Shown here: positions 25,938-64,000 of the stretch, piece by piece
Layout: every line of letters starts with the position of its first letter
Numbering within the stretch: position 1 is the stretch's first letter
NCBI GenBank assembly: GCA_001051155.2
Contig: JYIP02000010.1
Span: 1,178,001-1,242,000, forward strand
Source: Chrysoporthe austroafricana
Lineage: Eukaryota; Ascomycota; Sordariomycetes; Diaporthales; Cryphonectriaceae
DNA: 64,000 nt
Reading direction: 5' to 3'
Position numbers and translations under genes: made by a program
The notes under the pieces: generated by a model
Database searches by the model: none
What the model was told of the DNA's origin: nothing
Seen by the model: only the letters and a program-made list of their open reading frames with translations

Positions 25938-26351
25938 ATGACTACAATGCAAATCATTGCCATCACTTCCGCGTTTCTCACGGCCATCGCTGCCGCCGCT
26001 CCCGGCACCTCCACCCTAGCCGAGCGAGACAACGTCTCGGGCTACAACGCAGACATGGATGTCGCTCATTACGAGGACTGCTGGAACCTCTGGGTTACCC
26101 AGCTCGGCATCACGGGCATCAGCGACAACCAGGGCGAGAGCACCTTCACCTGCTCCAACAGCAGCTATCCTGACATCCCCTTCTGGAACGACAAGTACCA
26201 GGGATACCTCTGGAACGGCAGTCCTGTCTCGGCCGTGACGAACTCTAAAGATCAGATGTTCAGGGATATGTCTGCCAAGTATGAGCATAGCGACTACATT
26301 GTGTGGGATGGAGCGTATGCACGAGCCGTTGGGTACCAGACCAACAATTAA
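25938..26351 (+). CDS. Small secreted protein, 137 residues, unknown function
   Basis: The N-terminus MTTMQIIAITSAFLTAIAAA is a typical signal peptide, with likely cleavage near the Ala-Ala-Ala-Pro stretch at residues 18-22. The mature part is about 115 residues, acidic and rich in Trp, Tyr, Asp and Asn. It has only two cysteines, in EDCWNLW (about residue 48) and FTCSNSSY (about residue 72), which could form one disulfide. NSS is a possible N-glycosylation site. There is no intron. It is the first gene after the left AT-rich block, a common setting for effector-like secreted proteins, but I see no known effector motif. The reading frame and secretion are well supported and the role is unknown. 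The second Met at residue 4 could be the true start. Confidence 0.75.
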   Translation: MTTMQIIAITSAFLTAIAAAAPGTSTLAERDNVSGYNADMDVAHYEDCWNLWVTQLGITGISDNQGESTFTCSNSSYPDIPFWNDKYQGYLWNGSPVSAVTNSKDQMFRDMSAKYEHSDYIVWDGAYARAVGYQTNN

Positions 26352-27145
26352 CTTATGGCTGATTGTGGTCTGATCCTAAGATTTGCGTGTGGGCCTTTTA
26401 CGATAGATTGACCAGTGGTCTGCGAGATAGCTTGAGGTGCTGATGGCTTCGAGGCCGGCCTCGGAGAGTGAATGAGATTGACCTGACCTTGTTCGCTGCT
26501 GCTTTACGGAAAGAGTTCGTCCCAAAACTTGAAGAAAGAGTTTATCCGTTCTAGCTGACTTAAAAAAAAGAACTTCCGTTTCTGTATAAATTATGATGTT
26601 ATTGTATTATTAACCCAGGGTTCAGTGGGGCCAGGACCACGCTGGTCTGAATCCAACACCCGCGGCAAGGAACGTTCTCATGTAAGCATCTTTGTACGTA
26701 AGCCTGGGTTAGCGATGGGCTCGCTGGGCTCGATATCGATCCAGGACTGGTAGGTTGCATGTTTCATAGCTGCTCTTCAGTCGTCAATCTAAGTAGCAGT
26801 TCCCTCTACAACTGTGGCCTCACCTCTGATACCTCTTTGGTGTATTTTTGTATAGCCTAGCGTAAACTTATTATTGAGGTGTCACTCGTGCCCCGCCTTT
26901 TCCCCGCGTGCAGACAACCCAACCCCTCCACCTTGCTCCCTTGCTCCCTGCGGAGTAAGCCCGAGCGCCCTAACGAACGACTGTTCCTCCCTTTATTATT
27001 GCCTTTCTGTGGCGGCAGACTCGATATAGAGCCTTCCCACACATACACACACACGCACACACTCTCTTGTCCCTTCGAATCGAGGCGCTACCAGGTCCCT
27101 ACATCACACTAGACCACCAGCCCACGAGCATTATTCTTCAGGAAC
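26352..27145. other. Intergenic region with a CA-rich microsatellite
   Basis: I see no gene. A short CA repeat (about 27,043-27,062) and pyrimidine-rich stretches lie within 100 bases upstream of the 27,146 start, as is common in fungal promoters and leaders. Confidence 0.45.
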
Positions 27146-29281
27146 ATGGAGCAACCCGATGCTAGTGTTGTCATCCGGGACTTGCACCAGGATCTGGCGC
27201 GGAAATATCGGCTGCATGGTGCCACGATTGAGACGCTATGGAAGGCATTCACCAAAGCACAGCGGACCAAGGCTATCAGAGAGGGAGCAGCGGATGGTGT
27301 TGTGCTCAAGCATCGTATGGACCCCTCGATGGGCAATGTCTGCAAGATCGTTCCAGAGTGGAATCTTCGAGATGTCGCCGACTCAAGCGATTTCCTCCTG
27401 GACCTCCTTCGCTACCGTGCCACGACTACATTGATGGAACAGTATGGCGAGCATCATCCCATGAATCCAGGAGGCGATCTCGGCTTCATCTCAACCATGA
27501 TGCAGACAAGAAATCTCCGGCTCGTGGACGAGCTTCGCCTGAGCGATGCCTTCACTGTCTTCCTCGACAACGACGACCACTATGGAAAATGTTACACTAT
27601 CGCGCCGGGGCTGGATCGCAACCAAGCGCTTGCCGGCTTTGAGCCTGCGATACAAGGGGGCCTTTGCATCCCCCAGTCTACTGCGGAGTTGGTTTTCATG
27701 AGACAGAGCAACCTTCTCCAGGCGCTCAATATCATCATCGAGGACATTCTAGAGATCGGATCCAAAACCAGAGCCGAGAAAAAGCAACACTCTAGAGACG
27801 TTGATGCGGCGGCTGCGGCTATGACCCGGCTGTCTATCCAGGCGCGGCCGACGAAACGCTCTCTCACCGACCTTCTCGAGGCTGCCAAGGACCAGAAGGG
27901 TCTGTCTGATGAGTACCTCCACCTGCTCATCGAGGAGCCGGTTGTGCTGGCGCACGCCGTGAACGTCACATTTTTCAGCCGCCCTGAGCTTGTCGCTGAT
28001 GAGAAGGGTCGTTCGCTGCCTATTCATACGGATCGCTTTATCAGCCCTGTCTTCTTTGATGTGATCCATGGGGCCATCCAGGGTGCTGCGATCTGGAACT
28101 ATCTCCATCAGCTACTTGGGCTTCTTGAAGCAACAGCCGACAGAGTCCGCCGGATGGTCATCCTCCAGGAGTTCTCCAATGTCTGCCATCTTCAATACGA
28201 CCGGACGCAGTGTCTCCTCAAGCGCCAGGTTCAGACCGGCACCGGCAAGAGATACTTCAAGAGGGTTGCCAATGTCTATGACAATGGCAATGCACGAGTC
28301 ACCATGAGAATCAAGCCGGAGGAGTTAACGCGAGCCGAACCCCAGCTGCGCTACCTTTTGCGGCTCTGCCAGACTGAAACCAATGCCACGACGGCCGCGG
28401 GATGGATGGAGAAGCTGGGCAGTTTGCACGTTTCGCATCCAGAGGAACGCGAGAAGCTCGCGGAGCGAGAGTTCAATGCTCTTTGGGATTATGCTGCCAT
28501 CGTCGCTTTTATGCAGGACGTAGCGCTTGGCATTTCCGTGCCACCACTCTCCCGCAAGACAGGACAGCTCTTTGTGTCACGATACAACGGTCTAGATAAC
28601 GAGCTAGCTCAGATCAAAGGCGATATCGATCTCACACAGTTTATAGTGCCAATCGACAACCTGCAGGAACCCGGTGTGGCAACCAGCACGCTAAGAGCTC
28701 TAGAAGAGGCCATCGTTGACAAGAAAGCAACCAAACTGGGTTTTATGTACCAGGATATGATAGAAGACTGTATTGCAGACGTCGAGAAGCAGTACCAAAA
28801 GATACAGGCCAAATTCGATCAGAAGGAGGAGCTGGCTCGATACCCTGCGCCGGATCCTCAGGTCCGCATTGAGCAGCGGAAACAGAAAGAGAAAACCCGG
28901 CCGAGTCATTCCTCAATTTTCGAACTCGTGCGCCCAACGGAAACGCCAGGGCAGGGGGATGGGAACACACCTCAGCTGCAGACATTTGTGGTGAGGAAGG
29001 CCACGGCAGAGGTCTTCACGACGCTTTTTGATAAGTCGAAGTCCCGGCGCCCAATTGCCTGGGCCTCTTTCGAAGCAGCCTTGGCCGACCTAGACTTCTC
29101 TGTCATTCCTAGGTTCGGGTCCGTCTATACCTTCGTTCCACCAGCGACTATGGCCGTGAACAAGTCTCTGACGCTGCACCGACCGCACAAGTCGAACATC
29201 GAGGGGTGGTTGGTGCCGACCTTCGCACGTCGGCTGAACAGGTTGTATGGATGGGGAAAGGATACCTTTCGGTCTGAGTGA
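27146..29281 (+). CDS. Large fungal protein of the 'ipa protein' type, 711 residues
   Basis: A single uninterrupted frame starts at the ATG after a pyrimidine-rich leader and ends TGA at 29,279-29,281. There is no signal peptide or membrane segment, so it is probably intracellular. The middle (about residues 200-620) is mostly helical and charged, with Lys/Glu/Gln-rich stretches near 570-610. The C-terminal 110 residues form a compact block (FVVRKATAEVFTTLF, then PRFGSVYTFVPPATM, then a His-containing strand LTLHRPHKSN, then FARRLNRLYGWG). That block loosely resembles the small HicA-type alpha/beta fold, where a His follows a strand. I recall similar proteins annotated as 'ipa protein' in many Pezizomycotina, without proven function. 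The frame is certain and the family name is from memory. Confidence 0.7.
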   Translation: MEQPDASVVIRDLHQDLARKYRLHGATIETLWKAFTKAQRTKAIREGAADGVVLKHRMDPSMGNVCKIVPEWNLRDVADSSDFLLDLLRYRATTTLMEQYGEHHPMNPGGDLGFISTMMQTRNLRLVDELRLSDAFTVFLDNDDHYGKCYTIAPGLDRNQALAGFEPAIQGGLCIPQSTAELVFMRQSNLLQALNIIIEDILEIGSKTRAEKKQHSRDVDAAAAAMTRLSIQARPTKRSLTDLLEAAKDQKGLSDEYLHLLIEEPVVLAHAVNVTFFSRPELVADEKGRSLPIHTDRFISPVFFDVIHGAIQGAAIWNYLHQLLGLLEATADRVRRMVILQEFSNVCHLQYDRTQCLLKRQVQTGTGKRYFKRVANVYDNGNARVTMRIKPEELTRAEPQLRYLLRLCQTETNATTAAGWMEKLGSLHVSHPEEREKLAEREFNALWDYAAIVAFMQDVALGISVPPLSRKTGQLFVSRYNGLDNELAQIKGDIDLTQFIVPIDNLQEPGVATSTLRALEEAIVDKKATKLGFMYQDMIEDCIADVEKQYQKIQAKFDQKEELARYPAPDPQVRIEQRKQKEKTRPSHSSIFELVRPTETPGQGDGNTPQLQTFVVRKATAEVFTTLFDKSKSRRPIAWASFEAALADLDFSVIPRFGSVYTFVPPATMAVNKSLTLHRPHKSNIEGWLVPTFARRLNRLYGWGKDTFRSE

Positions 29282-31351: not shown

Positions 31352-31966
31352 TCATTTCAAACTCGTGCATAAGCCTAAGCTTAAAACGTGATCAAATATC
31401 TTTTGGGCTGCTTGCTCAGCGGTCAAAGTAGTAGTATCCAGCTCCAATGCATATTTTGATTCTGCAAAACGATGAATAGTGCATCCGCGGCGGAAAAATC
31501 GCAAGAGGTCGGGATCGAGTATTTTATGGTGTCTCTCGCGTTCTGCTGTACCAAGCCTCTCCAAGTTGACTATCTCATCGCACTCGAGCACGATTGGGAT
31601 CAGAGCGCATTTCCGGGATTGAGCCGCTTTAAGGAATTCGGCACATGTAGCTGATCCTATAGGGTCACTGGATTGAAAATCGGTGAAAATGTAGAAGTGG
31701 GCGTATGTCGATACGTTTTCGGCCAGGCTAGTGAAAATAGCGGCCCGGATACCTTTACGGAGATCTTGGTAGCCAGACTCTGTGCGGTGCAGAACGGCAT
31801 CGGCCGGATCAATCAGGAGGTGGTTGTGAACAAGTCGGCCATGCTGTCCGAGCAGACGCTGAAGGATGCGCGCAATAGTAAGCTTGCCTGTGCCGGGGAA
31901 CCCGTTGATATGAATGATTGGCCTGGGTTCTGCAATACGTGCAAGATTACCACCCTGAGAAGTCAT
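31352..31966 (-). CDS. P-loop kinase-like protein, 204 residues
   Basis: The segment HINGFPGTGKLTIA (Walker A, residues 22-30) follows a short beta strand (PIIHI). This is the start of a small nucleotide-binding kinase fold. After it comes a Leu-rich helix, then HNHLLIDPADAV, a layout like shikimate-kinase or chloramphenicol-phosphotransferase-type P-loop enzymes. A second strand (CALIPIVLECDE, about residues 119-130) precedes RLGTAERERHH, a possible lid with arginines. It ends with a helix (TAEQAAQKIFDHVLSL) typical of such kinases. The substrate is unknown. The gene has no intron, lies about 640 bases beyond the 3' end of the repeat precursor and is on the same strand, so it may or may not belong to that cluster. 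Fold call good, function open. Confidence 0.7.
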   Translation of the reverse strand: MTSQGGNLARIAEPRPIIHINGFPGTGKLTIARILQRLLGQHGRLVHNHLLIDPADAVLHRTESGYQDLRKGIRAAIFTSLAENVSTYAHFYIFTDFQSSDPIGSATCAEFLKAAQSRKCALIPIVLECDEIVNLERLGTAERERHHKILDPDLLRFFRRGCTIHRFAESKYALELDTTTLTAEQAAQKIFDHVLSLGLCTSLK

Positions 31967-32605: not shown

Positions 32606-33466
32606 TTAATGCTTCTCAACAAGCTGTAGATTCGAAGTCAGCCTATATTCTAATACATAAGATTTTTCCCTACTCAGAATACTTACACCAGCGCAAGCCA
32701 TATCGCCGCGAGCAACGCATGCAAGCTCGTTGGGGCTGATCTCCTCTCTTATGACGAGCTAGGTCTCGGTTAGCTCGGAATTCATGTGAGGTCATGTGAA
32801 AAAGCAATACTTACGCCAGCACAAGCCATATCACCGCGGGCAACGCATGCCAGCTCGTTGGGCTTGACTTCGGCACGCTTCTTGTTCGCCTCGTTACGTG
32901 CAACAAGCTACATAAAATTGTTAAGATTGGGCGCCTGAAGCCGAGCTCGAAATCTCTATATATTATCACTCACACCGGCACAGGCCATGTCACCGCGGGC
33001 AACGCACGCAAGCTCGTTGCCAACCTCCTCCACGGACCGCGTGTCTGCAACAAGCTGAACCGAAGTGTTCATAATTAGTTCCCATTAGATTGCAAGCTAG
33101 TATAGGAGGATAACTTACCCCAGTGCAAGCCATGTCACCACGAGCCACGCAGGCGAGCTCGTTGGCAAGGGCCTCGTCGGCGCGCTTGCCCACGAGGCCG
33201 GCGCAAGCCATGTCACCTCGGGCAACGCAGGCCAGCTCGTTGCTCAAGTCCTCCACAGATCGTGTCTTCCCGACAAGCTGACTGGGGTGTTAATTTATTA
33301 TCACTCGTCCGCAAGTTTTGCAAGTGAGACTTACCCCGGCACATGCCATGTCACCACGAGCCACGCAGGCCAGCTCATTGCCAACCTGCTCAACAGTGCG
33401 TGTTTGGACTGGCAGAGTGCTAGCAGAAGCCAATGCAGCGGCGACGACGAAGATAGTGCAACGCAT
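32606..33466 (-). CDS. Secreted tandem-repeat peptide precursor with six Cys-flanked RGD units
   Basis: Six exons on the minus strand: 33466-33335, 33277-33119, 33054-32974, 32907-32815, 32758-32687 and 32623-32606. They total 555 nt and encode 184 residues. Introns are 56-66 nt with GTAAGT or GTGAGT donors and CAG or TAG acceptors, all in phase 0. Residues 1-16 (MRCTIFVVAAALASAS) form a signal peptide. Then come six copies of NELACVARGDMACAG, one with T for the second-last A. Spacers begin LVGK, LVAD, LVAR or LVIR. Two spacers contain KR (GKR-A and KKR-A), possible Kex2 sites; the others have single Arg (TR, AR, IR). The last exon encodes only LVEKH. Each unit could close a CVARGDMAC disulfide loop. 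The layout fits a Kex2-processed repeat protein, a RiPP precursor or a pheromone-like precursor (alpha-type pheromones share C-x3-G spacing but carry Trp, absent here). I do not recognise a named family. It lies head-to-head with the asparaginase gene, about 600 bases apart. Confidence 0.85.
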
Positions 33467-34069: not shown

Positions 34070-35928
34070 ATGGCATCCCAAGCAAAAGCTCCTTACGGTA
34101 TTGTTGTCCACGGGGGTGCTGCGGACTCGTGGATAGGAAACCCCGAGTCATGGGCGGCGACTAGGTCATTCCTGGGAAAACTGATGGATGACCTAACTAC
34201 GTCTCTCGAGAGGGGATGTGCGGCAGTCAATGTGGCTGCTGACGCGGTCGCAGCTCTTGAGGACTATCCCGAATTGTAAGTGTGGCCCTAACTTCCAAGA
34301 CCTGTGGTCTGTAGCAAGCTTGTGATGGAGGACGCGGAAACTTCAAAGACCGGATCGGAACCGTTTTCTTTTTCTTCTTTTCAGTGCTGATTTAAGTCTT
34401 GGCGCTGTAGCAATGCCGGCAAAGGTTCTGCTCTGAATCGTGCCGGCCTACATGAGCTCGAGGCAGGCATTGTACAAGGCACCGACTCGTGCTACCGCGC
34501 AGCGTTGTGCCTCAAGGCTACCAAGAATCCCATTCGCCTTGCGCAGGCTATGATGGCAGATTGTCGGCCGATAATCGTTTCCGGTGCTGGAGGCGATGAG
34601 CTCGCTAGAACCCTCGGACTTGAGACGGTACCAAACACATATTTCACGACCGAGAGAAGAAGACGCTTCTGGTCTAGTAGACAAAAGGGAATGGACGAAC
34701 ATGGAACAGTAGGAGCTGTAGTCTTGGACATACACGGCCATCTTGCAGCAGCCAATTCAACGGGTGGGACCATGTTCAAGCACGCTGGGAGAGTAGGAGA
34801 CACAGCAATTCTTGGCGCCGGTCTGTATGCCGATGGCGACGTAGCCATAACATGGTAAGTCTCCTTGAAAGACCTCGTTAAGGCTTGAGAATCCATTCTA
34901 ACAGGGGTACTGTACACAGTAGCGGTGGAGGAGAGCCAATCCTCGCGTCCATGCTATCAAACAGGATAGTAAATTGTCGGCGCATAGGCAAATCACTCGA
35001 CCAGGCCGTGTCATGTGCCATCCTGGAAGCTACTGCGCTCTTTCCAGACACGTCCTGCGGTGTCATTGCCATTTCTTCTTCTGGAGAGCAGGTCGTACAC
35101 TGTAACAGTCGCATATTCACAGTTTCTAGAGGTGGACTCCATGTTTCCTCAGCCCTCGATGTGGTTGTTCCCTGCACCATTCCGATCATTGCTCCTCTGT
35201 GCATCTTCCAGGATGATGTGGTCAGAATTGGGTTCTCGAAACATCCAACGGTGCCAATGCAAATACGTTTCCAGTTGCTCCAGTACGGAAATTTGGCTGA
35301 GATGGATCATAGCAGATTTAATCATGTGATGATGGCATTAAAGAAGGTAGCAGGTGTTTTGGTTCAGCTGGCTGATGTGCCGTATGTGGCCATGATGGCG
35401 GTGTCAGCAGGGAACGTGGGGTGCTTGTTCCCACTTGCACGACCGACAGATAGCATGAGCAGCTCCCAGGACGACGACGACGGAAGAATAGAAGCAAACT
35501 TGGATCTGAAGAGAGAGGTGGAACTGGAGGAAGACCACTCAGCATTGCTGTTTCCCAGGCGTCTCCAGATGCGTTGGTCGGGGGGGCCCGTCTCGGTTAC
35601 TGGGCAGAGGGGTCCGCTTTCCTTGTTCGCTTTGGGCGACGATGACTTTGCCAGGGCCTGCAATGCGCTCCACAGCGCTATACGGCTGGGCCTACGGGAG
35701 GCCTTGCAGGTCGAATCCTCCTGGTGTCTGATAGTCGCTCCAGAGCAAGGACCCACTTGGGCGGTGCTGAGGGAACACGTTGGTCCCGATCCCAACTGGC
35801 CTGCGCCATCACCTTCGAATCCTGACTGCCGAGGCCCGTTTCTCATTGGCTTGGGCACCAAGATATCGGACATGCAGCTTCAAGATCTATGCGAGCTGGC
35901 CAAGGAAGCTCGAACAAGACTCAGATAG
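34070..35928 (+). CDS. Ntn-hydrolase asparaginase-like protein with unassigned C-terminal domain
   Basis: Proposed exons are 34070-34275, 34411-34854 and 34920-35928 (552 residues). Donors are GTAAGT and acceptors TAG and CAG. The splice at 34275/34411 rebuilds the family motif FNAGKGSALN, which supports it. N-terminal landmarks of plant-type asparaginase/isoaspartyl peptidase: IVVHGGA (residues 11-17), FNAGKGS (69-75), the autoprocessing GTVGAV with nucleophile Thr168, STGG and GRVGDTAILGAG. Enzymes of this class cleave themselves before the Thr and hydrolyse Asn or isoaspartyl bonds. The usual family length is 310-350. Here about 250 further residues follow, with a DDDD-containing acidic loop and hydrophobic strands. 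I cannot assign them; a weak resemblance to HIT-type folds (DDVVRIGFSKHP) is not enough to call. It neighbours and is divergent from the repeat precursor. Confidence 0.78.
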
Positions 35929-36270: not shown

Positions 36271-38515
36271 ATGAGTGCCGATGGAATGTCCCTACGCCCG
36301 ATAGTCGCGCCCAGGACTAAGTGGAGATTCGCTCTCTGCATATGGAGTATGTGATCGGGGTTGGATCTCGAGGTCGACCATTAGGCTAAAACAGATATTA
36401 GCTATTCTACTTTCTAACTTTGTGGGATTATTTGGCTCCGTCTGTCATGCGAGGATTCAAGACTTATTGTAACATAGGTTACGGCTCTTGATTCTAGCCT
36501 GTCGTCCTCAGCCTATGTAGCCGTCGCATCCCATTTCGACTACTCTCACGCCTCAACATGGCCAGTCAACGCTTTTCTGATATGCTCACTGATTGCGCAA
36601 CCACTATACGCCGGAACATCGGAGCATGTTGGCCGCAGGCCCGTCTTCTTAACAGCCGCTGTGCTTTTCTTACTGGGAACTCTGTCTGCCGCCACCGCTT
36701 CATCTTGGACTTTACTCATCATCGCCAGATGTCTCTGCGGATTTGGTGTGGCAGGGCTTATGACTATGGGTAAGCAGACTCTCGATTTAATATTGCCAAT
36801 CTCTGAATTGCTGATCATAGGGGCTTCAGGCTCGGTGATTCTGACGGATCTCGTCGGTGTGGAAAGAAGAGGCCATTACCAGTCCTTGAATTATGTGAAT
36901 TACGGTTTGGGGTCTGCGTGGGTACTCCTCGCCTTTATGTTGGGTATTTTAAACCACAGCTGACGCAATAATGTTTCTTGAAACCAGCATCGGTTCCGTC
37001 ACGGGCGGTGCCCTCGTGGATCGTTTTGGCTGGAGCTACGTCTACAAAGTATGTTTCCCTTTTAGGGAGGGTCGGGGCATGACTAACGACGTTTCAATTC
37101 CCTGGCGATAGTCTCAACTGCCATTATCCGTTACGTCTATTGTGATGATTTGGGCTTTCGTGCCCTCTCAGGACCGATCAGGGGGGGAACCTGTCAGTCC
37201 GGAGCCGGCCGCCTCGTGTTTTTTTGAGGTTTATGACATTAAGGGTTCTTTCTACTTGGTCAGCATTGAGACGTATCGGATCGCCTTTGCAAACTTGTTG
37301 TACTGATACCGTCTCTGTAGGTTTCTTCGTTGTTGTGTTTTATATTCGTTCTTGGCACCGGTGGCAATGTATTTCCTTGGTCGCATCCACTGGTTTTGTC
37401 TTCCGGTGCCTTGCTCGGCTGTCTCCTCGTGGCTTTGGCCATTACGGAGAAGAATACCAGCAATCCTATCCTGCCTCCAGCAATTTTCCTTTCACCGTTG
37501 CGGAGCGTTGTAGCCACCGGATTTTTGTTTTCTATGATCAACTACACTGCAAGTGGCTTTTTACTCTTAACATTACCTAGTGCCTCCAATTTCTCTTACT
37601 GCTCTTATGTGAGTTTGTGGCCCTGAAACTGACTGCATATATGAATAGGTCATGTACAACACCACTTTGTTCTTTCAGACTGTGAGGCTAGAGAGTGCTG
37701 AGGAAGCAAGCGCTCACCTGCTCATTCCCTCTGTTGCATTCACCCTTGCAAGCGCAGCCACCGGGACTTTGATAGTCCGCTTACAGACACCTCGACCTAC
37801 GTTACTGGCAAGCCGTAACCTGCTGCTCATGGGCTCGATTGGATCCGTTTTCATGGTAGCCGTGCTTTCGAGCCTTGGCGTCTCAGACGTTGCTTATGAC
37901 CTCTTGCTCATGTTGTCAACGTCAGGAGCCGGTATGATGGCACCCAGCACTGTGCTCACTCTACTCAACCTTTGCAACAGAGATGAGCACGCTACGGTCA
38001 ATGGTGTTTTCATCATGATGCGATCCCTAGGAGTGATAACAGCGACATCTCTGAGCACAACAATTATCCAGAACATATTCCAAGAATATCTGAGCCTCCA
38101 CAACTATAGTGATGCAACTCTTGAGGTAATCTAACCGACCCATCTTTCTTTACTGTACCGTCGTAAGCAAAAGATGGAGAGGCTCATGAGTCTAACGGCT
38201 ATTTCCCCCCGCAGATGATTGAAGAAGCTCGCCTCAATATAAACTTGATCAAGCAGCTTCCAAGTGCCATAAAATTAGAAGGTTAGCAAACACCCCACTT
38301 AGTGTGTAAGTACAGTCGCGGCTGATAACTGTATAGTCACCAGAGCTTACAAAATGGGGTTCACTTGTATATTTGGACTGAACATTGTATTGTCCTTGGC
38401 AATCTATTGGACTATCAGCTCATTACCAACCCAAGGATTTCTAGACAAGTCTGCGACTGCAACGGATGGTACTGATGTAGAACTTCTTGGTAATGAGGTT
38501 GATGATGACGTTTGA
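36271..38515 (+). CDS. Major facilitator superfamily (MFS) transporter
   Basis: A multi-intron gene for a 12- to 14-helix transporter in the plasma or a vacuolar membrane. Visible pieces in order: HFDYSHASTWPVNAFLI, then the family loop EHVGRRPVFLT between helices 2 and 3, then CLCGFGVAGLMTMG joined across an intron (36,770-36,820) to ASGSVILTDLVGVERRG. Next comes GSVTGGALVDRFGWSYVYK, matching the drug-transporter motif C region before a helix, then further hydrophobic helices to a tail ending EVDDDV at TGA 38,515. The loop motifs are those of DHA-type multidrug exporters. I place the start at ATG 36,271, but the first two splice sites are weak and the exact N-terminus is uncertain. A later splice near 38,130-38,345 is also unresolved. 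In this setting it could export the cluster product. Confidence 0.72.
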
Positions 38516-39652: not shown

Positions 39653-40813
39653 TTAAGGAGCGGTATTTACACCCTTGAGCCTAGGCAGCAGCTGAATATC
39701 TCGAATATCATCATGCTGCATCAGCCAGCAGAGAAATCTTTCCGAACCAATCCCCCAGCCGGTAGTCTCGAGAGCTCTGAAGCGCCGCATCTCTACATAC
39801 CATGAATAGTCTTCTGGGCTGACATTGTGCTGCTCCAGAGCTTCTAAAGCAGCCTCAGCCGTGTCGTGGCGCTTGCCGCAGCCTACAACCTCCCCCAGGC
39901 CTAGGAGTAGATCACCACAAGTAGCCTTCTTTTTGGTTTCATCAGCGTATCCTTGGTAGAAAGGGACGCCAAGGTGATCCATTTCCACTACCCAGCAGGC
40001 CCCTCCAAATCGCGTGATGAGAGCTTGTTCTCCTCTCCTTGTGAGGGATCGCCCGCACTCGGGTCTCCCGGGAACTGTGTGGCTCCACATGGCTGCGTTC
40101 TTCATCTCAGGGAATTCCAGAGCATTATCCAAGGTGACCACTGGAAACCTGTTCCCATGACGTGAATAGAGCTCCAGCAAGCTTCTGATGTGAGCGGTGG
40201 AGCCCGCAAATAACTCGATCTCCGCGCTGTGCTGCTCGAGGAGTGCCCTGGCCAGGTGGACAATATAGTCGTTGGCCACAGCCATCCCGTCCTCGAGACC
40301 ACCACGGAGTTCACACTCGACGTGGCAGAACTGGTTCAGATGAGAACTGTCCGGATCCTCGCCGCGGCAGCTGGTACCGACGTAGTAGGTGCCTGGCACA
40401 CGGGTATCGTAGCGCAGCGCGTACTCCAAAAGAAATTGCTGCGAGTCGGCAAGGTAGGTATCCCTGCCGTGGAGCTTGATCTCAACAGGCTGTGAGTCCG
40501 AGCCGAGCCCCATCGGGGAACTAATGCTTCCCGTGGTCAAGGGCACGAGCAGATAGCGATATTTCAGCTGAGGTTGGCGGAAGTAGTCGATAGAGGCGTG
40601 GAAGAAGGTGCTTTGGACGGAGAATATTGTCTGGTACCATTTTGAGCGCAAGGCCGAGACAGCGAATGAGTCCCCCAGGCCCCAGATTCTGGGCACCTGC
40701 TCTTTGGGTCGTTGCTTCAGCTCTACAGTCGTGACACAAGCTGATTTGGAGGGCTCGGGAGCGAAAGCCGGGTCCGTGACGGCGGTCAGAATCGGATCCG
40801 CTACGGTCGCCAT
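39653..40813 (-). CDS. Stand-alone asparaginyl-tRNA-synthetase-like catalytic core (class II aaRS paralogue)
   Basis: 386 residues from the preferred ATG at 40,813 (A at -3 and G at +4); an in-frame ATG 34 codons upstream is the alternative. The protein is a class II aminoacyl-tRNA synthetase catalytic core of the Asn/Asp group. Residues about 119-135 (TYLADSQQFLLEYALRY) match the conserved block before motif 2. Motif 2 is SCRGEDPDSSHLNQFCHVE with Arg150. Motif 3 is GWGIGSERFLCWLMQHDDIR, followed by DIQLLPR. The ATP-binding arginines appear intact. There is no N-terminal OB-fold anticodon-binding domain, which normally occupies about 100 or more residues. An AsnRS paralogue lacking that domain in the archaeon Pyrococcus abyssi is a tRNA-independent asparagine synthetase. 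This one may likewise activate an Asp/Asn-like substrate, which is inference. It is divergent from the UstYa gene. Confidence 0.82.
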   Translation of the reverse strand: MATVADPILTAVTDPAFAPEPSKSACVTTVELKQRPKEQVPRIWGLGDSFAVSALRSKWYQTIFSVQSTFFHASIDYFRQPQLKYRYLLVPLTTGSISSPMGLGSDSQPVEIKLHGRDTYLADSQQFLLEYALRYDTRVPGTYYVGTSCRGEDPDSSHLNQFCHVECELRGGLEDGMAVANDYIVHLARALLEQHSAEIELFAGSTAHIRSLLELYSRHGNRFPVVTLDNALEFPEMKNAAMWSHTVPGRPECGRSLTRRGEQALITRFGGACWVVEMDHLGVPFYQGYADETKKKATCGDLLLGLGEVVGCGKRHDTAEAALEALEQHNVSPEDYSWYVEMRRFRALETTGWGIGSERFLCWLMQHDDIRDIQLLPRLKGVNTAP

Positions 40814-41410: not shown

Positions 41411-42434
41411 ATGGACAATTCGCAGCGTCACCTCGAGTACTATCCTGCGCCGACGAACAGCTCGGATGCAGAGGCCAACGAAATCTCAGACAGCGAGAAG
41501 GAGTCCTTTCTGTGGCGCGACTCGCATCCCAGACTAAGCATCTGCTCAAAGATTGCATCTCAGTGGCCGACGCTGACCTTGCTCGTTCTGATACTAGCTC
41601 TCAATCTTTTCTCACTCTTGTTGTCCAAGGAAAGCCCATCCCAAGAGCAAACACGAGACGACTATTTTTGTGAGTCCGAGTGATCGTACGCTAGCAACTT
41701 GCATGCCAATAGCTGTACGCTGACGTTTAAACGCCGTTCACTACAGTGAAGGCTCCCAACGGACAGACTTTCCCGGGCTCTGTGACCCGGACATATTGGG
41801 ACTATGATGATGATTTCCTCAACCATAATTTGACGATCGCTCATGAATTTTGGGCTAGTCTTTTTCCATGTAACGAGATACCTATGTAACTCCAATAATC
41901 TGGCAACCCTTACTCACGTATCTCTGCTCGGTAGATGGAGACGGTATTGTTGCTCTCACCGACGCAGAAGTCGAGGATCTAGGTGTCGTACAATCCAGAC
42001 CCACTTTCCACGACCCTTCTAAGCGAGTCTATCTCGTTGCTGCCTTTCATCAACTCCACTGTCTCGTAAGTCACCAATTGGACACTATTCCCCCCCGGGG
42101 TGATCAGGCTGATGATATTATCAAATAGAGTCAGCTCCGATCCCTCATCATCAAACTGCACCTCGACCCACAGTTCTCGGTGGCGGACCCAACCTACTAT
42201 CACACGATGCACTGCGTAGATATACTGCGGCAGTCAATACTCTGTCACTCTGATGGTACTCTCATTTACAAACGCCTAGAGGACAAATGGCCAGGCGACG
42301 GAGGCCTCCGGACGTGCAACAACTTTGACGCCTTGACGCGGTGGACTAATGAACATGGCTACGAGTCCTTTCCTGAAGATCCAAAGTTGATCCCCGGCGA
42401 CCAAGATGATCATACGGGGCATGTGTCTGAGTGA
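41411..42434 (+). CDS. UstYa-family (DUF3328) oxidase-like membrane protein
   Basis: Exons 41411-41669, 41747-41869, 41935-42065 and 42129-42434 give 272 residues with continuous family text across all three splices. A hydrophilic N-terminus is followed by one membrane helix (about residues 54-71, TLLVLILALNLFSLLL). Two copies of the diagnostic HxxHC motif are present: HQLHC (166-170) and HTMHC (196-200), followed by VDILRQSILCHSD. In this family these motifs are needed for oxidation or cyclisation of peptides made by RiPP clusters (ustiloxin, phomopsin, asperipin types) and for modifications in some other fungal pathways. The upstream GTG at 41,399 is not a credible start in a fungus, so I chose ATG 41,411. 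No damage is seen. The substrate is unknown; the repeat precursor 8 kb away is the obvious candidate. Confidence 0.9.
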
Positions 42435-44283: not shown

Positions 44284-44830
44284 ATGGCTTCTCGTGACTA
44301 CATCATCGTCGGCGGCGACACATCTAGCCTTGTCGTTACCAACCGTCTATCCGACGACCTTGATGTTCAAGTCTTGGTGCTTGAAGTCGGCGAGGATCTT
44401 TCGGCCGATTTCCGCGTCAAAATCCCGGCCTTCTTCACTTCCATCATAGGCTCTAATACCGACTAAAAATACCACTCGGTTCCCCAACCTAGCCTGCGCG
44501 GCCGGTCCATCCGAGCTCCAACGTAACGCCCTCGGTAGCTCGCCGGCCATCAATGGCCAGACTTTCATCGATCCGACCTAGGCTAAGAATGATGCCTAGG
44601 CTAAGCTAGTAAACCCGGGATGGGACTGGGCTGATCTGGTCCCTTCGAACAGGAAGTCATACACGCTCCTGCTGCCAACAGACCAGGCCACGCTCAGCCA
44701 TCTCGGCATCGACTAGATTAAGGATGAATGCCGTGGCACTTTGGGCCCTATCAAAGTATCCTTTCCTGGCGTCTTGTACAGCTCACTTTGCAAAGCGTGG
44801 ATTAATGCCTCATGAACAAGGTCACCAACG
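44284..44830 (+). pseudogene. GMC oxidoreductase pseudogene (N-terminal part)
   Basis: MASRDYIIVGGDTSSLVVTN is the FAD-binding N-terminus of the glucose-methanol-choline oxidoreductase family, with two glycines of the dinucleotide-binding loop changed to Asp and Ser. The frame stops at TAA 44,464-44,466, where a Trp codon is expected (before KYHSVPQP). Downstream pieces such as SVPQPSLRGRSIRAP and NPGWDWADLVP continue the family text in shifted frames with further stops, one TAG again at a likely Trp. The changes are G-to-A type, so leakage of RIP or similar decay is plausible. Only about the first third of a GMC enzyme is recognisable. It is non-functional. Confidence 0.75.
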
Positions 44831-45389
44831 CCGGTCAGCAAGCTAGATGAACCGCCAACCGTAACGACAACCCATAGCCGCGAAGACGATTCCCGAAAGT
44901 GCGTTGATGAGACTTTTCGACTTTTCTAGGGAGGACCTGTACTGAATTTGTTCATTCAAGTCCTCTCCGGACATACTAATATTTTGATATCGGATATTTT
45001 AGTAGTTGAGCATGTTTGGCAAGTGGTGGACCCCGTCAGTGTGGCACATTAAGATCGCACGCACCCTTTCACTTCAATTCTTCCCATGAAGGATAGTATA
45101 TCAAATTGCTGCTCTTGCCTTGTAAAGGTAACTTCAATCAATAGTTTTTATTTTTCGTATCCGTTTTGAAGCTACCCTCCCGTGATTTGACCAGCATTCG
45201 ATCTTTCTTTTTCTTTTTCTTTTTCTTTTTCTTTTTCTTTTTCTTTTTCTTTTTCGGTCGTGACCTTGGGATCTCACCATTCGTTATGTCCACGAATTTC
45301 TTCAATAACACAATCGTTATCTGACTCTTGATGGTGATGCACTACTAACGTAACATTCTTCGACCTGGCTTGATCCTACAATAAACACT
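44831..45389. repeat. Intergenic with TTTTTC hexamer microsatellite
   Basis: No gene. A perfect run of CTTTTT units lies at about 45,203-45,255. Confidence 0.7.
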
Positions 45390-46800
45390 TCAAGTCAAAG
45401 ATATTCTTCGCCATACAAGATCTGTTACAATCGTACAACTCTTCCATAGTGGCGTGATAACCTTTTCTTCCCGTACTCCTAATTGCTTCATTAAGGGCGA
45501 CAGGATATACAAATCACACCATCTCGAAGGTTCGCTTGACCTGAATCCCCCCGAGCGGATGTATTTGGTCCTCAACCAGGGACGTCCGGCCCGCCGCTCG
45601 CACGACGCCCCTTGTACTGCTGCTTTCGGCCGAGATATGAACCCAGGGCTGGCTGTGCTCGCTGCTAGCGCGGTCAGATAAGGCTCCCAACTCGGTACTC
45701 TGGCTAGCCTATGTTGTTCTGCCCGTCTAATGAGAGCTACGGCAGAAGCGGGGGCTTTTCTGATATGAGTCGAGGCGAGCCTACCCCAGAAGTCTTCCTT
45801 GGGCAGCAAGGGACCAAGAACAGACGCCAAGCAGCAGATAATTAGGGATGCCATTTGCAGAACATCCCATATGCCGATCGTCTGAAACAAATCTAAGTTG
45901 AAGGAACATACGTTCGTACCTGGGGTGTGGTTTCTTTTTCCTCTTGTTTCCTTTCCTGCTGATTACTCTCTGTATTAGTTTGGAATTTGCCCGAGACCTG
46001 GTATTACCAGGACACAGGGCTTTTGGTGTGACCACAAGAAGAAGAGGAAAAGGCTTAAAAAGGAAAAGAAAAGTAAAACACTTACTATCCCGTGGAGATG
46101 TGTATGGTAGTCCTATCTTTATAAATCCAAATACACCAGCACTATATAGAAAATCCAATGCCCATCCATCGGCCACACATTTTGCGATACCTAATATGCA
46201 AGAGAGTAAAATGGGAGGCGGGGGTTAGAGATGATAGACTGACAGTCCTAGCACAAAGAGGAAACGTAGCCTTCAGATTGTCCTGCTGGGCATCTGAAGC
46301 CTGCGCACCATGATCATCGCCAGGGCCACCAAAATAAATCGACAATGCTATTTGGGCCTTCGAGGCCGAACATCATCGCGCCCGTGCTCAGACAACTGCC
46401 CTCAATCTAAGGCTCCCAGAAGTAATTAACAGGTGCTGTGAGGCTTTCAGATTTGTGATCTTTTTGACTTGCCAATTGGCAACATGGCACTGCTATGGGT
46501 GGAGCCTAGCACGTGCTGTTTGAAATAAGAAGGAGCAGTGGGGTCGGCGGGGAGAAAGAGCAGAGGTGTATCGCTAGGTGTGGCGACGGTGAGAAGATCA
46601 GGCTTACTACATTCAAAGAACTGGATGAACAGCATAATGAGTGATCTGACAATCTGAATTACGCTAAGTGCGTAGATGTGAGCATTATAACTCTGGTTGA
46701 CCCTAAAAATTCGATGATAGAGGGCTAGGATGCTGAGTTTTCCAAAACGTTGTTGGACAGGGTACATCTCGTTACTGATATATGCCCACTATTATCAAAA
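45390..46800 (-). pseudogene. SAT4/rhodopsin-like fungal membrane protein, decayed or badly split
   Basis: On the minus strand two separated pieces look like the SAT4 family (fungal rhodopsin-domain integral membrane proteins). QRFGKLSILALYHRIFRVNQ and the next helix (about 46,767-46,600) fit transmembrane segments 3-4. MASLIICCLASVLGPLLPKEDFWGRL (quoted from two adjoining parts, MASLIICCLASV and LGPLLPKEDFWGRL; about 45,850-45,770) fits the last helix and tail. The linking region (45,900-46,450) holds some hydrophobic text (FLYSAGVFGFIKI) but no clean splice path. The N-terminal helices should lie upstream of 46,800, where a long pyrimidine microsatellite is found instead. I favour a pseudogene; a gene with unseen introns is the alternative. 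Confidence 0.5.
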
Positions 46801-47730: not shown

Positions 47731-48480
47731 TTATCCCCTTTCTATCGGTTATTATCCTTAATAATACTTTTGTAAGTATTCTCGTTTGGCAAGTTTCTTA
47801 TCGTACTTTCCTTATTGAGATATCTTATAGGGTCAATAAAGCTCGTAATTTTTCGTCCACTCTTTCTTCAAAAAGTCTTGCCCGCCTTAAGCGATTTTCG
47901 TTTATCGAGTTCCGAGAGTACGAAATTATGCTTTGTTTATTCTGCCTTGAAAAGGGCTTGTCGTATCGTATAGTAGATAGGGTTAAGAGTTGTTCTAATT
48001 GTACGAAACGGGGGCGTTCTTGTAATGCCGGACGGGTTCCGTTATCGTTTTATGGGTTCCCCCTTTTTTTTTTTTTTTTCATCTTACTCTTCCTAATCCT
48101 GCTATAATATTACGAGTTACTGACGAATTGTCCCGGATCGATAGCTATAAAGTCGAAAAGGAAAGGCAGCTTTTCGAGCTTTAATCCCGTATAACCGAAT
48201 CCTTAGCTTGTTTTATACGGTTAAAGAGGCAATGCCGCTTTCTCCAGGAAAAAAGGATAAAGTTAGTAAACTAGGGTTTGGAAAAGGAAAAGCGTAATTG
48301 TATGGCTGTCGAAATGCAAGCGGTAATTTCTGAAAAATCTGCAGCTATTGCTGCAAATCCTTCTTTTAGTAGTTTTGATTGGAATTCCGTAAGTATTAGT
48401 AATTCTGTAATGGACTAGTTTGGTTTTTTGGGTAAAGCTAATTCCTATTCTGGATCCGGGCAGTTTTCTTAAGAGCTTTG
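47731..48480 (+). pseudogene. Element E antisense accessory ORF: Cys-rich plus coiled-coil protein (best-preserved copy)
   Basis: It reads opposite to the pol of this element. From 47,938 a frame shows C-x2-C-x15-C-x2-C-x6-C, ending NCTKRGRSC at about 48,033. This resembles a small metal-binding cluster with a basic loop, somewhat like fungal zinc-cluster DNA-binding domains. It is followed by a T-run and then helix-rich text (SRIDSYKVEKERQLFEL, later LEKEKRNCMAVEMQAVI), ending near 48,480. TAG stops fall at likely glutamine codons. I recognise no named family. The presence of the same ORF in the same place in six elements argues that it was once functional in the element life cycle. Confidence 0.65.
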
Positions 48481-48539
48481 AGTAAGTAAAATCTTTTACA
48501 GGTTTATTCCTTTCCGCTATTGTTTGTCCAAGTAATTTG

Positions 48540-51500
48540 CTAATGCTCGAAATGCATTTTGTAAATTAATCTTAAGTTCCTATGAATTTTTATTTGCCAG
48601 GTAGCCTTTCCATTTAATAAAGTATTCGGAATTGTAATTTAGTCCGCAATATTTGAAAATTCGTTCGATTTTGTATTCTGGCTTATTACTTTCTACTTGA
48701 ATGCTTTTATCTGTTTTAGTCGATCTTAATACTGGTTCGAAAAGCGAAATATAGAATACCGGATAGATTCTTATTCTATAGGGTAATGCGAGTTTGAAAT
48801 TGATATCTAAGATTTTCTTTAAGATTTTGAATAGTCCTAATTTCTTATAATCCAGTAAGTAAAAGGGTCTTGTTATTTTGATATATTCTTTTCGTCGAAC
48901 AAAATAGATTTTATCCCTTTCCTATAGGATTAATCCTTTAATCCTTTTGGAATTAGCGTATTTCGTTATTCTTTCTTGTACGAATTTCAGTTCTTTCTGG
49001 AATTCTTCCTGAACTTTCTTAATCTTTCTGACTTATCTTTCTGCAGCTTCTGCATTTGCTCCTGGTATTTCGTTATAATAAGCTATCGGGTTATAGCTAT
49101 AGAATGCATAAAATAATGATTTTTTTATCGTACTTATATCTATACTATTATATGCAAATTGCGCTAGGGGTAGGAAGTCGATCCAGTTATCCTATTCGTA
49201 ATTTATATAATATCGTAAGTATTGCTTAATAATCTAATTAGTTCTTTCCGTTTATCTATTTGTTTATAGATAGAATACTATGGATATTCTCTATTATGCT
49301 CTAAATAGTTTCGTAAATAAGGTCCAGAAATTTGATACGAACTTTCTATTTCTATCGGAAATAATTTCCTTAAATATGCCATAATTGGCTATAACCGTTC
49401 TGAAAAACGTATATGCGAGTTCTTCCGCTATATTGCTTTCCTTATATAGTAGGAAATAAGCGTACTTGCTTAATCTGCAAACTATTATTAGAATGCTATC
49501 GCATTGCATTTTAGTTAAGGGTTCTTATAAGAGAAATAGCTTGGTAATGAAATCCCAGCTAATAGATTGCCAAACTGCTTCCGGAATCGGGAATAATTAG
49601 AGCAACTTATAGAGCTTATAATATTCGATCTTATTCTTCTTGCAGCTATCGCATTTTTATAAGATTCTTTCGATCTTTCGTTTAAATCCTAATAAGTTCC
49701 AATATCTCTTAATCCTTTCGTAAATAGCTCTGATTCTTTAATAACTATATGCTAATGCACTATATATAATTCTAATGTATTCGTCTTGCTTTTCGGGGGT
49801 TATATTTTCAGGATTTCTTTCTTAATTCTCGATTCTAATAATTGTATTGAATTCTCTTATTTTATTTATAAGGCTATTATTTTTGTCTTATCGAAAGATA
49901 TTCTGGAATTCTTTTAATTCTGAATTTTGGTAGTCTGATCGTTTGCTAAGTACGTCTGCTCTGTTATTTTCGGATCCTTTGCAATAGACAATCTTTAAAT
50001 CAAATTGTAAAAGGAATTCTGCCTATTTGATCTGTCGTTTATTCAAGATTTTGGTAATTATAAATATTATAAGATTCTTGTAATCCGAATATATTATAAT
50101 TTAATACTTGATTCCGATTAAATATCGCTGCTATTCCTCGAATGCTTTGATAATTGCTATTAATTCTTTATCGGGAATACCGTAATTAAGTTTTGGGCCG
50201 TTTAGTTTCTTTGAAAAGTTGCTTACAATCCTAAAGCGTCCTTGATCGTCTCTCTGGCCCAGTTATTTGCCGAATGCATAGTCTGATACGTCGGTTTCAA
50301 TTTCAAAAGGTTTTTCTGGATCTGCTTTGCAAAAAATAAGTTCTATCGTAACTTGTCTTTTGATTTCGTTAAATGCTTCCTGTATTTCTAAGGTCTATTC
50401 GAACTTCCGATCTTTTTTCGTTAAGTCTGTAAGCGAGTATGCGATCTTGCTATAGTTTCGGATAAACTATCAGTAGAAATTGGCATATCCGAAAAATGCT
50501 CTGATATCCTTAATATTCTTTGGGGTAAGCCATTCCCGTATTGCTCTAACTTTATCTTATTGCATACTAATCTATTTTAGCTCGATAGTATAGCTTAAAT
50601 AATTAACCTTTTGTTAATGGAAATAATATTTGCTTGGCTCGATTAGAAGTTTATTATCTTATAGCGTATGAAATACTTCTTGTATATGCTGCTTGTATAT
50701 TTCGAAGTTTTTCGAGAAAATCAAGATATTATCGAAATAGATAATAATAGTAATATCCAGAAACTTACGCAAGACATAATTAATCATTTCCTGGAAGGAT
50801 ACTAGTACGTTTGTAAGCCCGAAAAGCATAATTACATATTCGAAATATCTATAGCGTATTCTGAAAGCTATCTTCCAGATATCGTCTTCCTTAATTCTGA
50901 TATAATAATATCCTTCTTTGAGGTTAAGCATAGTAAACTATCTTGCTCTAATCAATCGATCTTTCATTTCACTTGCTAGCGGCAATGGGTATCGATTCTT
51001 GATAGTAATATCGTTAAGCTATCGGTAATCTATATAAAGCCGTAATTTACCGTTCTTTTTGGGTACGAACAGGATAAAGTATCCTGCTAGTAATCGCAAT
51101 AGTTGTATATAGCCTCGTTTCAAGTTCTTATCAATATATTCTTTAAGCGCTTTGAGTCTTGCTTTATCAAGTCCGTAAATGGGGAAGAATTTTGGCTATA
51201 TTCCTTTTTTCAAAAGGATCTCGTAATCGTACGGGCTATATTCTAGTAATCCCGTATTAAACTTCCCTTGCTATAGTTTCTTGAATTCGTAATATTCTCT
51301 TGATATATTTTCGAATATCGGTATTGGTCCTTTTTCGTCTTCTGCAATTTGTAAGAATATAAGGTACCGTTATGCGTATTTTCTTTCGCTAGCCTCCTGT
51401 TTTTGGGGCTTTCTTATTTCTAGTAATTTCGGGTATTTATTAAGTATCGAACCGAATTGTCTTCTGGCATATTCATGCTATAGGAGCTATATTTCCTTAT

Positions 51501-52100
51501 AGTTCTATAATCCGCATTTTTTCGTATTGTTCCGTACTTGACCGTTTTTCTGTTAGTCGATAGTTACTTGTAATTTTGGTTTATCCCTAACTTTTGTCTG
51601 GAAGTTTAAAGTATTCGTAACCCTTCCTTATATTATAGCTTGTTCTTTAGCCTTAAGGGTATTTATAAGCCTATTTGAACGCATTTCTCTTATACTGTCC
51701 TCAGTAATTAAGTCTTTTCCTTTCCTAATAATTGCAACCTTCTCGGTAAGTATGGCTTATTCCTATAAAATCTGGCCAGTAATCCAATTAATTCGAAGGT
51801 TATGCTTCTTAAGCTAAAGTATTCCCAAGATTAACTTATGCTATGCCGTATCTATAATATCGAAAGCGACGCTTATCGTAAGGCCTTAGATCGAAATAAG
51901 TAAATAATCAGTTTCCATATCGATTATATTTAGGTTATACGTAACCGACTTTCTTTCTATAGTATTAAGCTTGTAAGAATCCTTCTTTTGCATCCAAAGA
52001 ATTCGTTCTCTATTAACGATTTCGGGCGAGATAAAATTTCCTTATACGCCGCTATCCAATAATGCGCTATATCGTTATCCTTTGATATATGCGTCCAGAA
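48540..52100 (-). pseudogene. Element E pol remnant
   Basis: Minus-strand relics: chromodomain near 48,700-48,560, integrase 49,509-49,294 with KEIISDRNRKFVSNFW, RT 50,931-50,659 with LKEGYYYIRIKEDDIW and YFDNILIFS (second Asp of the catalytic pair changed to Asn), and a protease relic near 52,060. Stops are fewer than in the other copies but the frame is not intact. Confidence 0.8.
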
Positions 52101-53229
52101 TAATATGCTTTTCGTCCTTCTTGGTAATAGCATATAAGGACCTCGTAATCCTGATCGGCTATTATCTTATTATAGGCGATCTTTCCTTTTTGGGATTTCT
52201 TAAGCGTTTCTCGCTGCTTGCTATACTAGCCTTCTCGCTTAAGCATAGTTTCGCTACCGATTCTTCTCGATTTTCTGCAGCTTATGCTATTCTTTAGCTT
52301 TATCCTATGCATATATGGAATATGCTATTACATAGCATTATCCCCATATAGTTCTTCTATCTATGCATGCTTATAGGCAATTATCGGGTAGCCCTATATA
52401 TGCATTATTATTTTCGATATGCAAGACTTTTCTGAATTTTCCCTTTCTTTCTGTAACGGGATAGATTAATTAGTCTTATTCCTTAAATAGAAACCAATTT
52501 TGTTTAACTTTCTCGCTAAAATATATCTGGCAGTTATAATAAATACAGCTAATCCAGGCAAGTTTATAATATCGAAAGTATAAATAACTAATCCTTCCGT
52601 CTTTTTAGAATAGGCATCCGCTATTCTGGAATAGTATGCCTTAAAGGAATTCTTTTATCGTAAGCCTATAAATAATATGCTCTACTTCCGTATATTTGGA
52701 TATCCATTTATTGCAATTTTGGCAATTCTTCTGCTAATAGCGAATTGTTTCTTTTAATAATTCTTTATTAGGGACTGGAATTAGTAGGTTATCTGGCTAT
52801 CTATCGGGATATGCCGATTCCTCGATAATAATGCTAAGTATTAAGGATTCTGGTCTTATAATGCCGATTTCCTTTTCTACTATATTATTCCATTATCATT
52901 CCAGATAATAATTTAAAAAGTATTTTCCTAAGTCTTCCTTGTTTCGTAAAAGTCTTTCGCTAAAGCAATCGGAATTATTATCCTGGATAATAGTATTGTA
53001 AAGTAAGCCTTTCTTGCTTATAGCGAATTGCTATTATCCCTAAAGCTTGCATAAGAACTATCCTGAATTTTCCTTTTCCGAGAGGTGCAATAAGCAATAA
53101 TCCTAATAGCAAGCTATCTAGCTTATGCTGCTATAATTAGGGTCCGCTACTTATTCCAGTAAGATATTTTTATCTAGCTAATTGGGTTCCTATTGCCAAG
53201 CGATATTAAGCTATTTCTCTAAGACTAGC

Positions 53230-54190: not shown

Positions 54191-54232
54191 AAAAGTATAT
54201 ACTGAACCGATCTTGAATAAAAGTTATCAAAA

Positions 54233-54469
54233 TATTATAAATGCTGCAGCAAATCCTAAGATATACTATAGGGTTAAAGGGTTTATGCTAATAAAAGCAG
54301 TGCCAAGTACAGCCTTAAGTTTCAGGATAAAATTACTGAGTTTCGCAATATTCATAAGCCAATTCGTAACCCTAACCCTAACTTACGTAATCCTTGCGGG
54401 GTACGTGTTTCATTCTGTTAGCTTGATCCCGAGCCGGGGTTTGTCCTTCTTGTATGTTGGTCCATAACA
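54233..54469 (-). repeat. 5' LTR of element E (right end), internally deleted
   Basis: It starts TATTATAAATGCTGCAGCAA and ends TTGGTCCATAACA with an intact CA. After ATTCATAAGCCAAT it jumps to the CGTAACCCTAACC segment, missing about 174 bases present at 47,320-47,730. Confidence 0.82.
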
Positions 54470-54474
54470 ATAAG

Positions 54475-57180: not shown

Positions 57181-57189
57181 CTAGTTAAT

Positions 57190-60489: not shown

Positions 60490-60589
60490 TTTTTACGATT
60501 CTTATTTAAAAACGGTTTAATATATACCTTTTAAGCAATACTCGAAATATAATAGCATTCCAAATTCCGTTTTCTTTTAGCAATTAAGC

Positions 60590-63933: not shown

Positions 63934-64000
63934 TATTATGAACCAACATACAGAAGGACAAACCCTGACCTAGGGCCAAATCAAGAGAATGAAAATACGT
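63934..64000 (+). repeat. Start of another LTR, cut by the window end
   Basis: TATTATGAACCAACATACAG resembles the LTR starts of element A and the solo LTR. It interrupts element G RT directly after TGCAT. The sequence to 64,000 is much less AT-rich than the surroundings, suggesting a younger or less mutated copy. Confidence 0.6.

What the first reader, a model, noticed from the sequence alone, without database searches (positions are those of the whole stretch)
32606..33466. Secreted precursor with six Cys-flanked RGD repeats
The spliced minus-strand gene encodes a signal peptide followed by six units NELACVARGDMACAG. Each unit holds a nine-residue CVARGDMAC segment that could close by a disulfide. 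RGD between cysteines is the layout of integrin-binding loops in animal disintegrins. A fungal multi-copy precursor of such a loop would be unusual, although RGD alone can occur by chance. Other readings are a RiPP precursor or a pheromone-like precursor (C-x3-G spacing as in alpha-type pheromones, but without Trp).
Basis: partly seen in the sequence, partly recalled or inferred. Interest (0 to 1): 0.92.

Follow-up and report, generated by a model that had tools for sequence, protein, structure and literature searches.

The report
Fungal multi-copy cyclic-peptide precursor gene
A fungal gene encodes a probably secreted protein holding six near-identical copies of a small peptide with two cysteines, and it sits near a gene for a peptide-modifying enzyme of the kind that helps make fungal cyclic peptides, so it is probably the raw material of a peptide natural product rather than an animal-style integrin ligand.

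Summary
The spliced minus-strand gene lies exactly at 32606-33466 with five GT-AG, phase-0 introns and encodes 184 aa with six NELACVARGDMAC[A/T]G units. Pairwise, the units differ by 107 synonymous and 5 nonsynonymous changes: strong purifying selection.

The integrin/disintegrin reading is not supported: in 29 units from seven proteins the R of RGD is kept in 25 and intact RGD in 24. It is not the main alpha-pheromone gene: ten WCLFHGEGCW copies lie in one ORF on another contig.

Relatives: four named Colletotrichum proteins, one unnamed, and a metagenome protein with GCTLGGDMACAG. A UstYa/DUF3328 oxidase gene lies 7.9 kb away (41411-42434). Its top homologue is CFIO01_03540 in C. fioriniae, where the precursor homologue is CFIO01_03534; C. 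phormii shows the same pairing by identifier and contig length. An AsnRS-like gene maps to contigs of the same lengths.

Best reading: precursor of a UstYa-type fungal RiPP with a tyrosine-free, two-cysteine core and an intron after five of six repeats. Product, modification and activity are inferred, not shown.

The parts
32606..33466 (-). Precursor gene, six exons, 184 aa, six two-cysteine units
33278..33334 (-). intron 1, after unit 1
33055..33118 (-). intron 2, after unit 3
32908..32973 (-). intron 3, after unit 4
32759..32814 (-). intron 4, after unit 5
32624..32686 (-). intron 5, after unit 6
41411..42434 (+). UstYa/DUF3328 oxidase gene, exons 41411-41669, 41747-41869, 41935-42065, 42129-42434, 272 aa, one hydrophobic segment, HQLHC and HTMHC motifs
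   Evidence: model; PF11807 E 2e-25, 90.4 bits against cut-off 25; genome hit
39653..40813 (-). AsnRS-like gene (class II aminoacyl-tRNA synthetase core, 386 aa); putative cluster member
   Evidence: PF00152 E 4.5e-23; homologues; closest solved chains are asparaginyl-tRNA synthetases
34070..35928 (+). Asparaginase_2 (isoaspartyl-peptidase-like) gene, first intron 34276-34410, later exon borders not modelled; membership of the cluster not tested
   Evidence: PF01112 on two pieces, E 1.7e-39 and 1.1e-6; intron
36478..38134 (+). MFS transporter gene, several exons, borders not modelled; membership of the cluster not tested
   Evidence: PF07690 on two pieces, E 2.2e-15, and 1.5e-6 (the latter below the curated score)

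Best explanation
The gene is the multi-core precursor of a UstYa-type fungal RiPP. Steps: the chain enters the secretory pathway through its N-terminal signal (inferred); Kex2-like cleavage at KR, and perhaps at single Arg sites such as TR|TV and TR|SV, frees fragments of roughly 20-30 residues, each holding NELACVARGDMAC[A/T]GLV (inferred from linkers); the two cysteines close a nine-residue ring as a disulfide and/or the UstYa oxidase, a membrane protein with its catalytic part predicted outside the membrane, makes an oxidative side-chain change (inferred from family); the product is exported. Shown: gene structure, repeats, selection on the unit, UstYa gene nearby, and the same pairing in C. 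fioriniae and, by identifiers, in C. phormii. Not shown: transcription, cleavage, modification, activity.
For: Six units under purifying selection. Relatives carry dibasic residues in 14 of 15 linkers under 30 residues. UstYa gene 7.9 kb away with both HxxHC motifs; 50 PF11807 places in 48.15 Mb give 0.021 expected within 10 kb either side; the only other one on this contig is over 1.1 Mb off. Top UstYa homologue CFIO01_03540, precursor homologue CFIO01_03534, both on contigs of 275967 bases; C. phormii BDP81DRAFT_396714 and _396710, both 1257961. UstYa and AsnRS-like trees both place the window outside Colletotrichum plus Hypocreales. In a published survey 1758 of 7878 Kex2-processed repeat proteins have a DUF3328 neighbour, on average 3.09 genes off, and pheromone precursors with three exceptions do not (PMC7329392, passages and Discussion); three recognised genes lie between here.
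Against: Only 2 of 5 linkers of this gene are dibasic. The protein has no Tyr, the residue used in ustiloxin, phomopsin and asperipin cores (PMC7329392). No close precursor was found for Trichoderma, Beauveria, Boeremia, Penicillium or Coleophoma, which have UstYa homologues. No tyrosinase, P450 or S41 peptidase was recognised among the ORFs scanned (not a full annotation). UstYa could belong with the AsnRS-like/asparaginase genes instead: Boeremia and Coleophoma have both on contigs of equal length.
Confidence: 0.72

Rival explanations
1. An unmodified Kex2-processed signalling peptide (hormone- or pheromone-like), folded only by its disulfide; the UstYa gene serves another product.
For: Signal-like start, repeats and KR linkers are the layout of such precursors (PMC6339444, section 10 and passages). 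C-x3-G-x3-C recalls the C-x3-G-x2-C of the alpha-pheromone in this genome. No Tyr.
Against: UstYa pairing kept in C. fioriniae and C. phormii. The dipeptides after KR are not the XA/XP series of this genome's own pheromone precursor (compare). That pheromone locus on C18 has no PF11807 place within 280 kb.
Confidence: 0.2
2. RGD-bearing effector that disturbs RGD-dependent wall-membrane adhesion of plant cells, as reported for the oomycete effector IPI-O and LecRK-I.9.
For: RGD between cysteines; R kept in 25 of 29 units, 6 of 6 in this gene despite three different Arg codons. Four named relatives are from Colletotrichum, a genus of plant pathogens. RGD of IPI-O is needed for its effect (PMC3068997, abstract).
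Against: R is lost in 4 and G in 1 of 29 units; all 15 positions are equally constrained in this gene, so RGD does not stand out.
Confidence: 0.05
3. The canonical alpha-pheromone gene of this fungus.
For: Repeats, two Cys with a Gly between, KR sites.
Against: Ten WCLFHGEGCW copies with KR-E/D-A/P spacers in one open frame on C18, and one STE2 gene.
Confidence: 0.02
4. A disintegrin-like animal integrin ligand.
For: CxxRGDxxC layout only.
Against: RGD not invariant; no solved-structure match; fungal biosynthetic neighbourhood.
Confidence: 0.01

Closest known systems
UstYa-dependent RiPPs of ascomycetes (dikaritins: ustiloxins, phomopsins, asperipins; victorin)
   Same: repeated cores in a precursor with a likely secretion signal; Kex2-type linkers in relatives; UstYa/DUF3328 gene nearby (PMC9233826 passages)
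   Different: no Tyr in the whole precursor; two Cys per core; core unit longer than the 4-6 residue cores; intron after five of six repeats; neighbours are an AsnRS-like and an asparaginase-like gene, no tyrosinase recognised
Kex2-processed repeat proteins (KEPs)
   Same: tandem near-identical units; KR linkers in relatives
   Different: in this gene only 2 of 5 linkers are dibasic; core not among the cross-genus motifs listed in PMC6339444 section 10, which left out genus-level families
Alpha-type mating pheromone precursors
   Same: repeats with C-x3-G-C pattern
   Different: C-x3-G-x3-C without Trp, no XA/XP series; separate canonical gene present
Disintegrins / RGD loops
   Same: RGD between cysteines
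   Different: RGD not kept in all units; no relationship found

Membership tests
KEP | three or more near-identical tandem units | tested here: met
   six units
KEP | Kex2 dibasic site between units | tested here: inconclusive
   2 of 5 linkers here; 14 of 15 short linkers in six relatives (two linkers of 30 or more residues left out of the count, both also dibasic)
KEP | signal peptide | tested here: inconclusive
   hydrophobic start with ASA-S site read by eye; no predictor available
UstYa-type RiPP | UstYa/DUF3328 gene near the precursor | tested here: met
   pairing in C. fioriniae and by identifiers in C. phormii
UstYa-type RiPP | both HxxHC motifs in the oxidase | tested here: met
   HQLHC and HTMHC; in the 11-row alignment one row (P0011) lacks the first His of the second motif
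UstYa-type RiPP | post-translational change of the core | not testable with these tools
   needs mass spectrometry
Dikaritin in the narrow sense | Tyr in the core for the cross-link | tested here: not met
   no Tyr in 184 aa; so not filed as a dikaritin proper. Victorin is a UstYa-era relative cyclised without Tyr (PMC9233826 passage)
Alpha-pheromone | W-C-x3-G-x2-C-W core and XA/XP spacers | tested here: not met
Disintegrin-like RGD ligand | RGD kept in homologues | tested here: not met
   intact RGD in 24 of 29 units

The most novel reading that the evidence does not exclude
A RiPP family not described in the texts searched: a cysteine-anchored, tyrosine-free core matured by a UstYa oxidase together with an AsnRS-like ligase and an isoaspartyl-peptidase-like hydrolase, spread over Sordariomycetes, with a precursor gene that grows by duplicating frame-neutral exons.
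Probability: 0.3. Interest if true: 0.82.

Novelty: new variant of a known kind. Interest (0 to 1): 0.58.

Why it matters
UstYa-family oxidases are numerous (50 PF11807 places in this genome alone), and those with known products act mostly on Tyr-containing cores. A conserved precursor-oxidase pair with a two-Cys, Tyr-free core would widen what these enzymes are thought to act on and gives a directly testable peptide mass. The neighbouring AsnRS-like and asparaginase-like genes suggest chemistry not reported for fungal RiPPs in the texts searched here. The layout of frame-neutral exons also explains why the gene is often mis-annotated: five units in relatives are followed by a residue pair (V-R or V-S) that looks like a read-through donor site.

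Tried and rejected
Integrin/disintegrin reading: rejected. Canonical pheromone: rejected. Pfam on the precursor gave V4R (E 6e-5, 23.5 bits against a cut-off of 31) and DUF5799 (E 0.047), both below their curated cut-offs and taken as repeat-driven chance. Second copy in the genome: none at E 0.001 outside the locus (an 80-aa piece as query); at E 10 one further place, C5, E 0.77, whose matched stretch I did not read (one search read the first 1200 bases of that locus only). Bacterial/archaeal and viral collections: 76 and 39 pattern matches, none confirmed; UstYa in viral contigs 178, none confirmed. A precursor alignment was made for a wider protein search that I did not run; the last protein search went to the AsnRS-like gene. 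Exact core strings in the paper library: one unrelated paper on crystallins holds RGDMAC. Thematic paper searches. WCLFHGEGCW and CLFHGEGC: no paper text found. Supplementary tables could not be read, so this precursor may already be listed in the KEP tables of PMC7329392 or PMC6339444.

Order of the fungus: WCLFHGEGCW is recalled as the Cryphonectria parasitica pheromone, which would suggest Diaporthales; this is recall, from no call. The trees place the window outside the Colletotrichum rows that it meets.

Full report
Observation. The gene is as described: minus strand, 33466 to 32606, six exons, five short GT-AG introns in phase 0, 184 residues, six NELACVARGDMAC[A/T]G units. Introns follow units 1, 3, 4, 5 and 6; units 2 and 3 share an exon. 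Each exon length is a multiple of three, so skipping an inner exon would keep the frame. Without splicing the frame starting at 33466 ends after 58 codons, inside intron 1.

Selection. Over 15 pairs of the six units there are 107 synonymous and 5 nonsynonymous differences; uncorrected pS is 0.655 and pN 0.0098. Twelve of 13 variable columns are third codon positions (P 1.9e-7). The units are old copies held constant as peptides, not fresh duplications. All 15 positions are constrained, so RGD does not stand out.

Relatives. Of 7052 candidates, six proteins reach E 0.001: Colletotrichum fioriniae, C. eremochloae, C. phormii, C. nupharicola, one unnamed (P0003) and a metagenome protein (P0006). 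With the window they give 29 units that fit C-x4-DMAC-x-G. One decayed unit of P0001 (NKLASDAQPDGACLLN) does not fit and is not counted. N1 and L3 are kept in 29 of 29, E2 27, A4 24, V6 25, A7 27, R8 25, G9 28, A14 26; the other positions were imposed by the search expression. RGD is intact in 24 of 29. P0006 reads NALGCTLGGDMACAG. Linkers are dibasic in 14 of 15 short cases in relatives but in 2 of 5 here; the others hold single Arg sites such as KTR|SV and DTR|SV, which resemble the R-T-V (in one relative R-N-V, in another R-T-I) before unit 1 in relatives. Five units in relatives are followed by V-R or V-S and then unrelated residues, as expected if the annotated model ran past a GTRNGT donor at the same place; this is inferred from protein letters, not DNA.

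Neighbourhood. The window holds a gene island between AT-rich blocks. Between the precursor and UstYa lie an Asparaginase_2 gene, an MFS transporter and an AsnRS-like gene. The UstYa gene (41411-42434) was found by a genome-wide PF11807 search (50 places listed), modelled, and scored E 2e-25. Expectation for a PF11807 place within 10 kb either side is 0.021, treating places as evenly spread and some genes as more than one place.

Conservation of the pairing. Twelve UstYa homologues reach E 1e-30. The first is CFIO01_03540; the precursor homologue is CFIO01_03534, on a contig of the same length. C. phormii has BDP81DRAFT_396714 and _396710, again equal contig lengths. No contig could be read, so adjacency rests on identifiers and lengths. 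C. noveboracense has UstYa, C. nupharicola the precursor; each was found without the partner, and no UstYa partner was listed for C. eremochloae. Trichoderma, Beauveria, Boeremia, Penicillium and Coleophoma homologues of UstYa have no listed precursor. The AsnRS-like search (482 hits at E 1e-30, best 120 listed) shows C. fioriniae and C. phormii on contigs of those same lengths, and Boeremia and Coleophoma on contigs of the same lengths as their UstYa.

Trees. UstYa: 11 rows (10 of 12 hits; two fragments left out), midpoint root: the window is sister to Colletotrichum plus Trichoderma/Beauveria, support 88/89, below the starred level. AsnRS-like: 26 rows (25 chosen from 120 listed), quick method, rooted on Streptomyces: the window with two unnamed rows is sister to Hypocreales plus Colletotrichum (94, also below the starred level), inside a 12-row clade of support 99; C. 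somersetense falls elsewhere, with Trichoderma gamsii, so a second lineage exists. The two trees agree in outline, weakly.

Against a pheromone. The genome has one STE2 match and ten WCLFHGEGCW copies in one open frame. The nearest PF11807 place on that contig is about 282 kb away. A survey reports that of 227 yeast alpha-factor and 216 fungal pheromone precursors all but three lack a DUF3328 neighbour (PMC7329392, Discussion read).

Mechanism. Best supported: secretion, Kex2-like release of units, ring closure through the two cysteines and/or UstYa chemistry, export. Cleavage sites, modification and activity are inferred. UstYa homologues are described as oxidases whose two HxxHC motifs are thought to be the active site (PMC12048977 passages). 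The AsnRS-like protein has asparaginyl-tRNA synthetases as closest solved chains (best E 4.1e-19, matched over residues 112-380), and in the homologue list its kind occurs fused to an Asparaginase_2 domain in Fusarium flagelliforme and carp. This pair may be a general module rather than RiPP tailoring.

Novelty. No paper in the searched library holds the core string apart from an unrelated crystallin text with RGDMAC. Searches combining UstYa, RiPP, tRNA synthetase, Kex2, Colletotrichum and cysteine listed no description of this precursor; listings were capped and supplements were not readable.

Noticed in passing
34070-35928 (+) and 39653-40813 (-): Asparaginase_2 gene and AsnRS-like gene as near neighbours; homologues of the AsnRS-like protein occur in fungi, fish and Streptomyces, some fused to Asparaginase_2. 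Looks like a separate module worth its own study.
   Followed up: partly
44284-44900 (+): Stretch that by eye recalls a GMC oxidoreductase start (MASRDYIIVGG) interrupted by stops; not tested, as one search failed on a stop codon.
   Followed up: no
2001-24000 and 48001-64000: AT-rich blocks (GC about 18-35% in most 2-kb bins) on both sides of the gene island.
   Followed up: no
27143-29281 (+): 712-residue open frame with no Pfam match.
   Followed up: no
25938-26351 (+): 137-residue frame with a signal-like start and no Pfam match.
   Followed up: no
46450-46788 (-): Piece of a fungal rhodopsin-domain protein, PF20684 E 8.6e-9.
   Followed up: no
31352-31966 (-): AAA_18 kinase-like open frame next to the precursor (PF13238 E 5.4e-7).
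   Followed up: no
L007 (G000:C18:1036043-1039072), frame from 1300: Alpha-pheromone precursor also holds other two-Cys pieces between Kex2 sites, such as ACNQPGEACDIARR.
   Followed up: no
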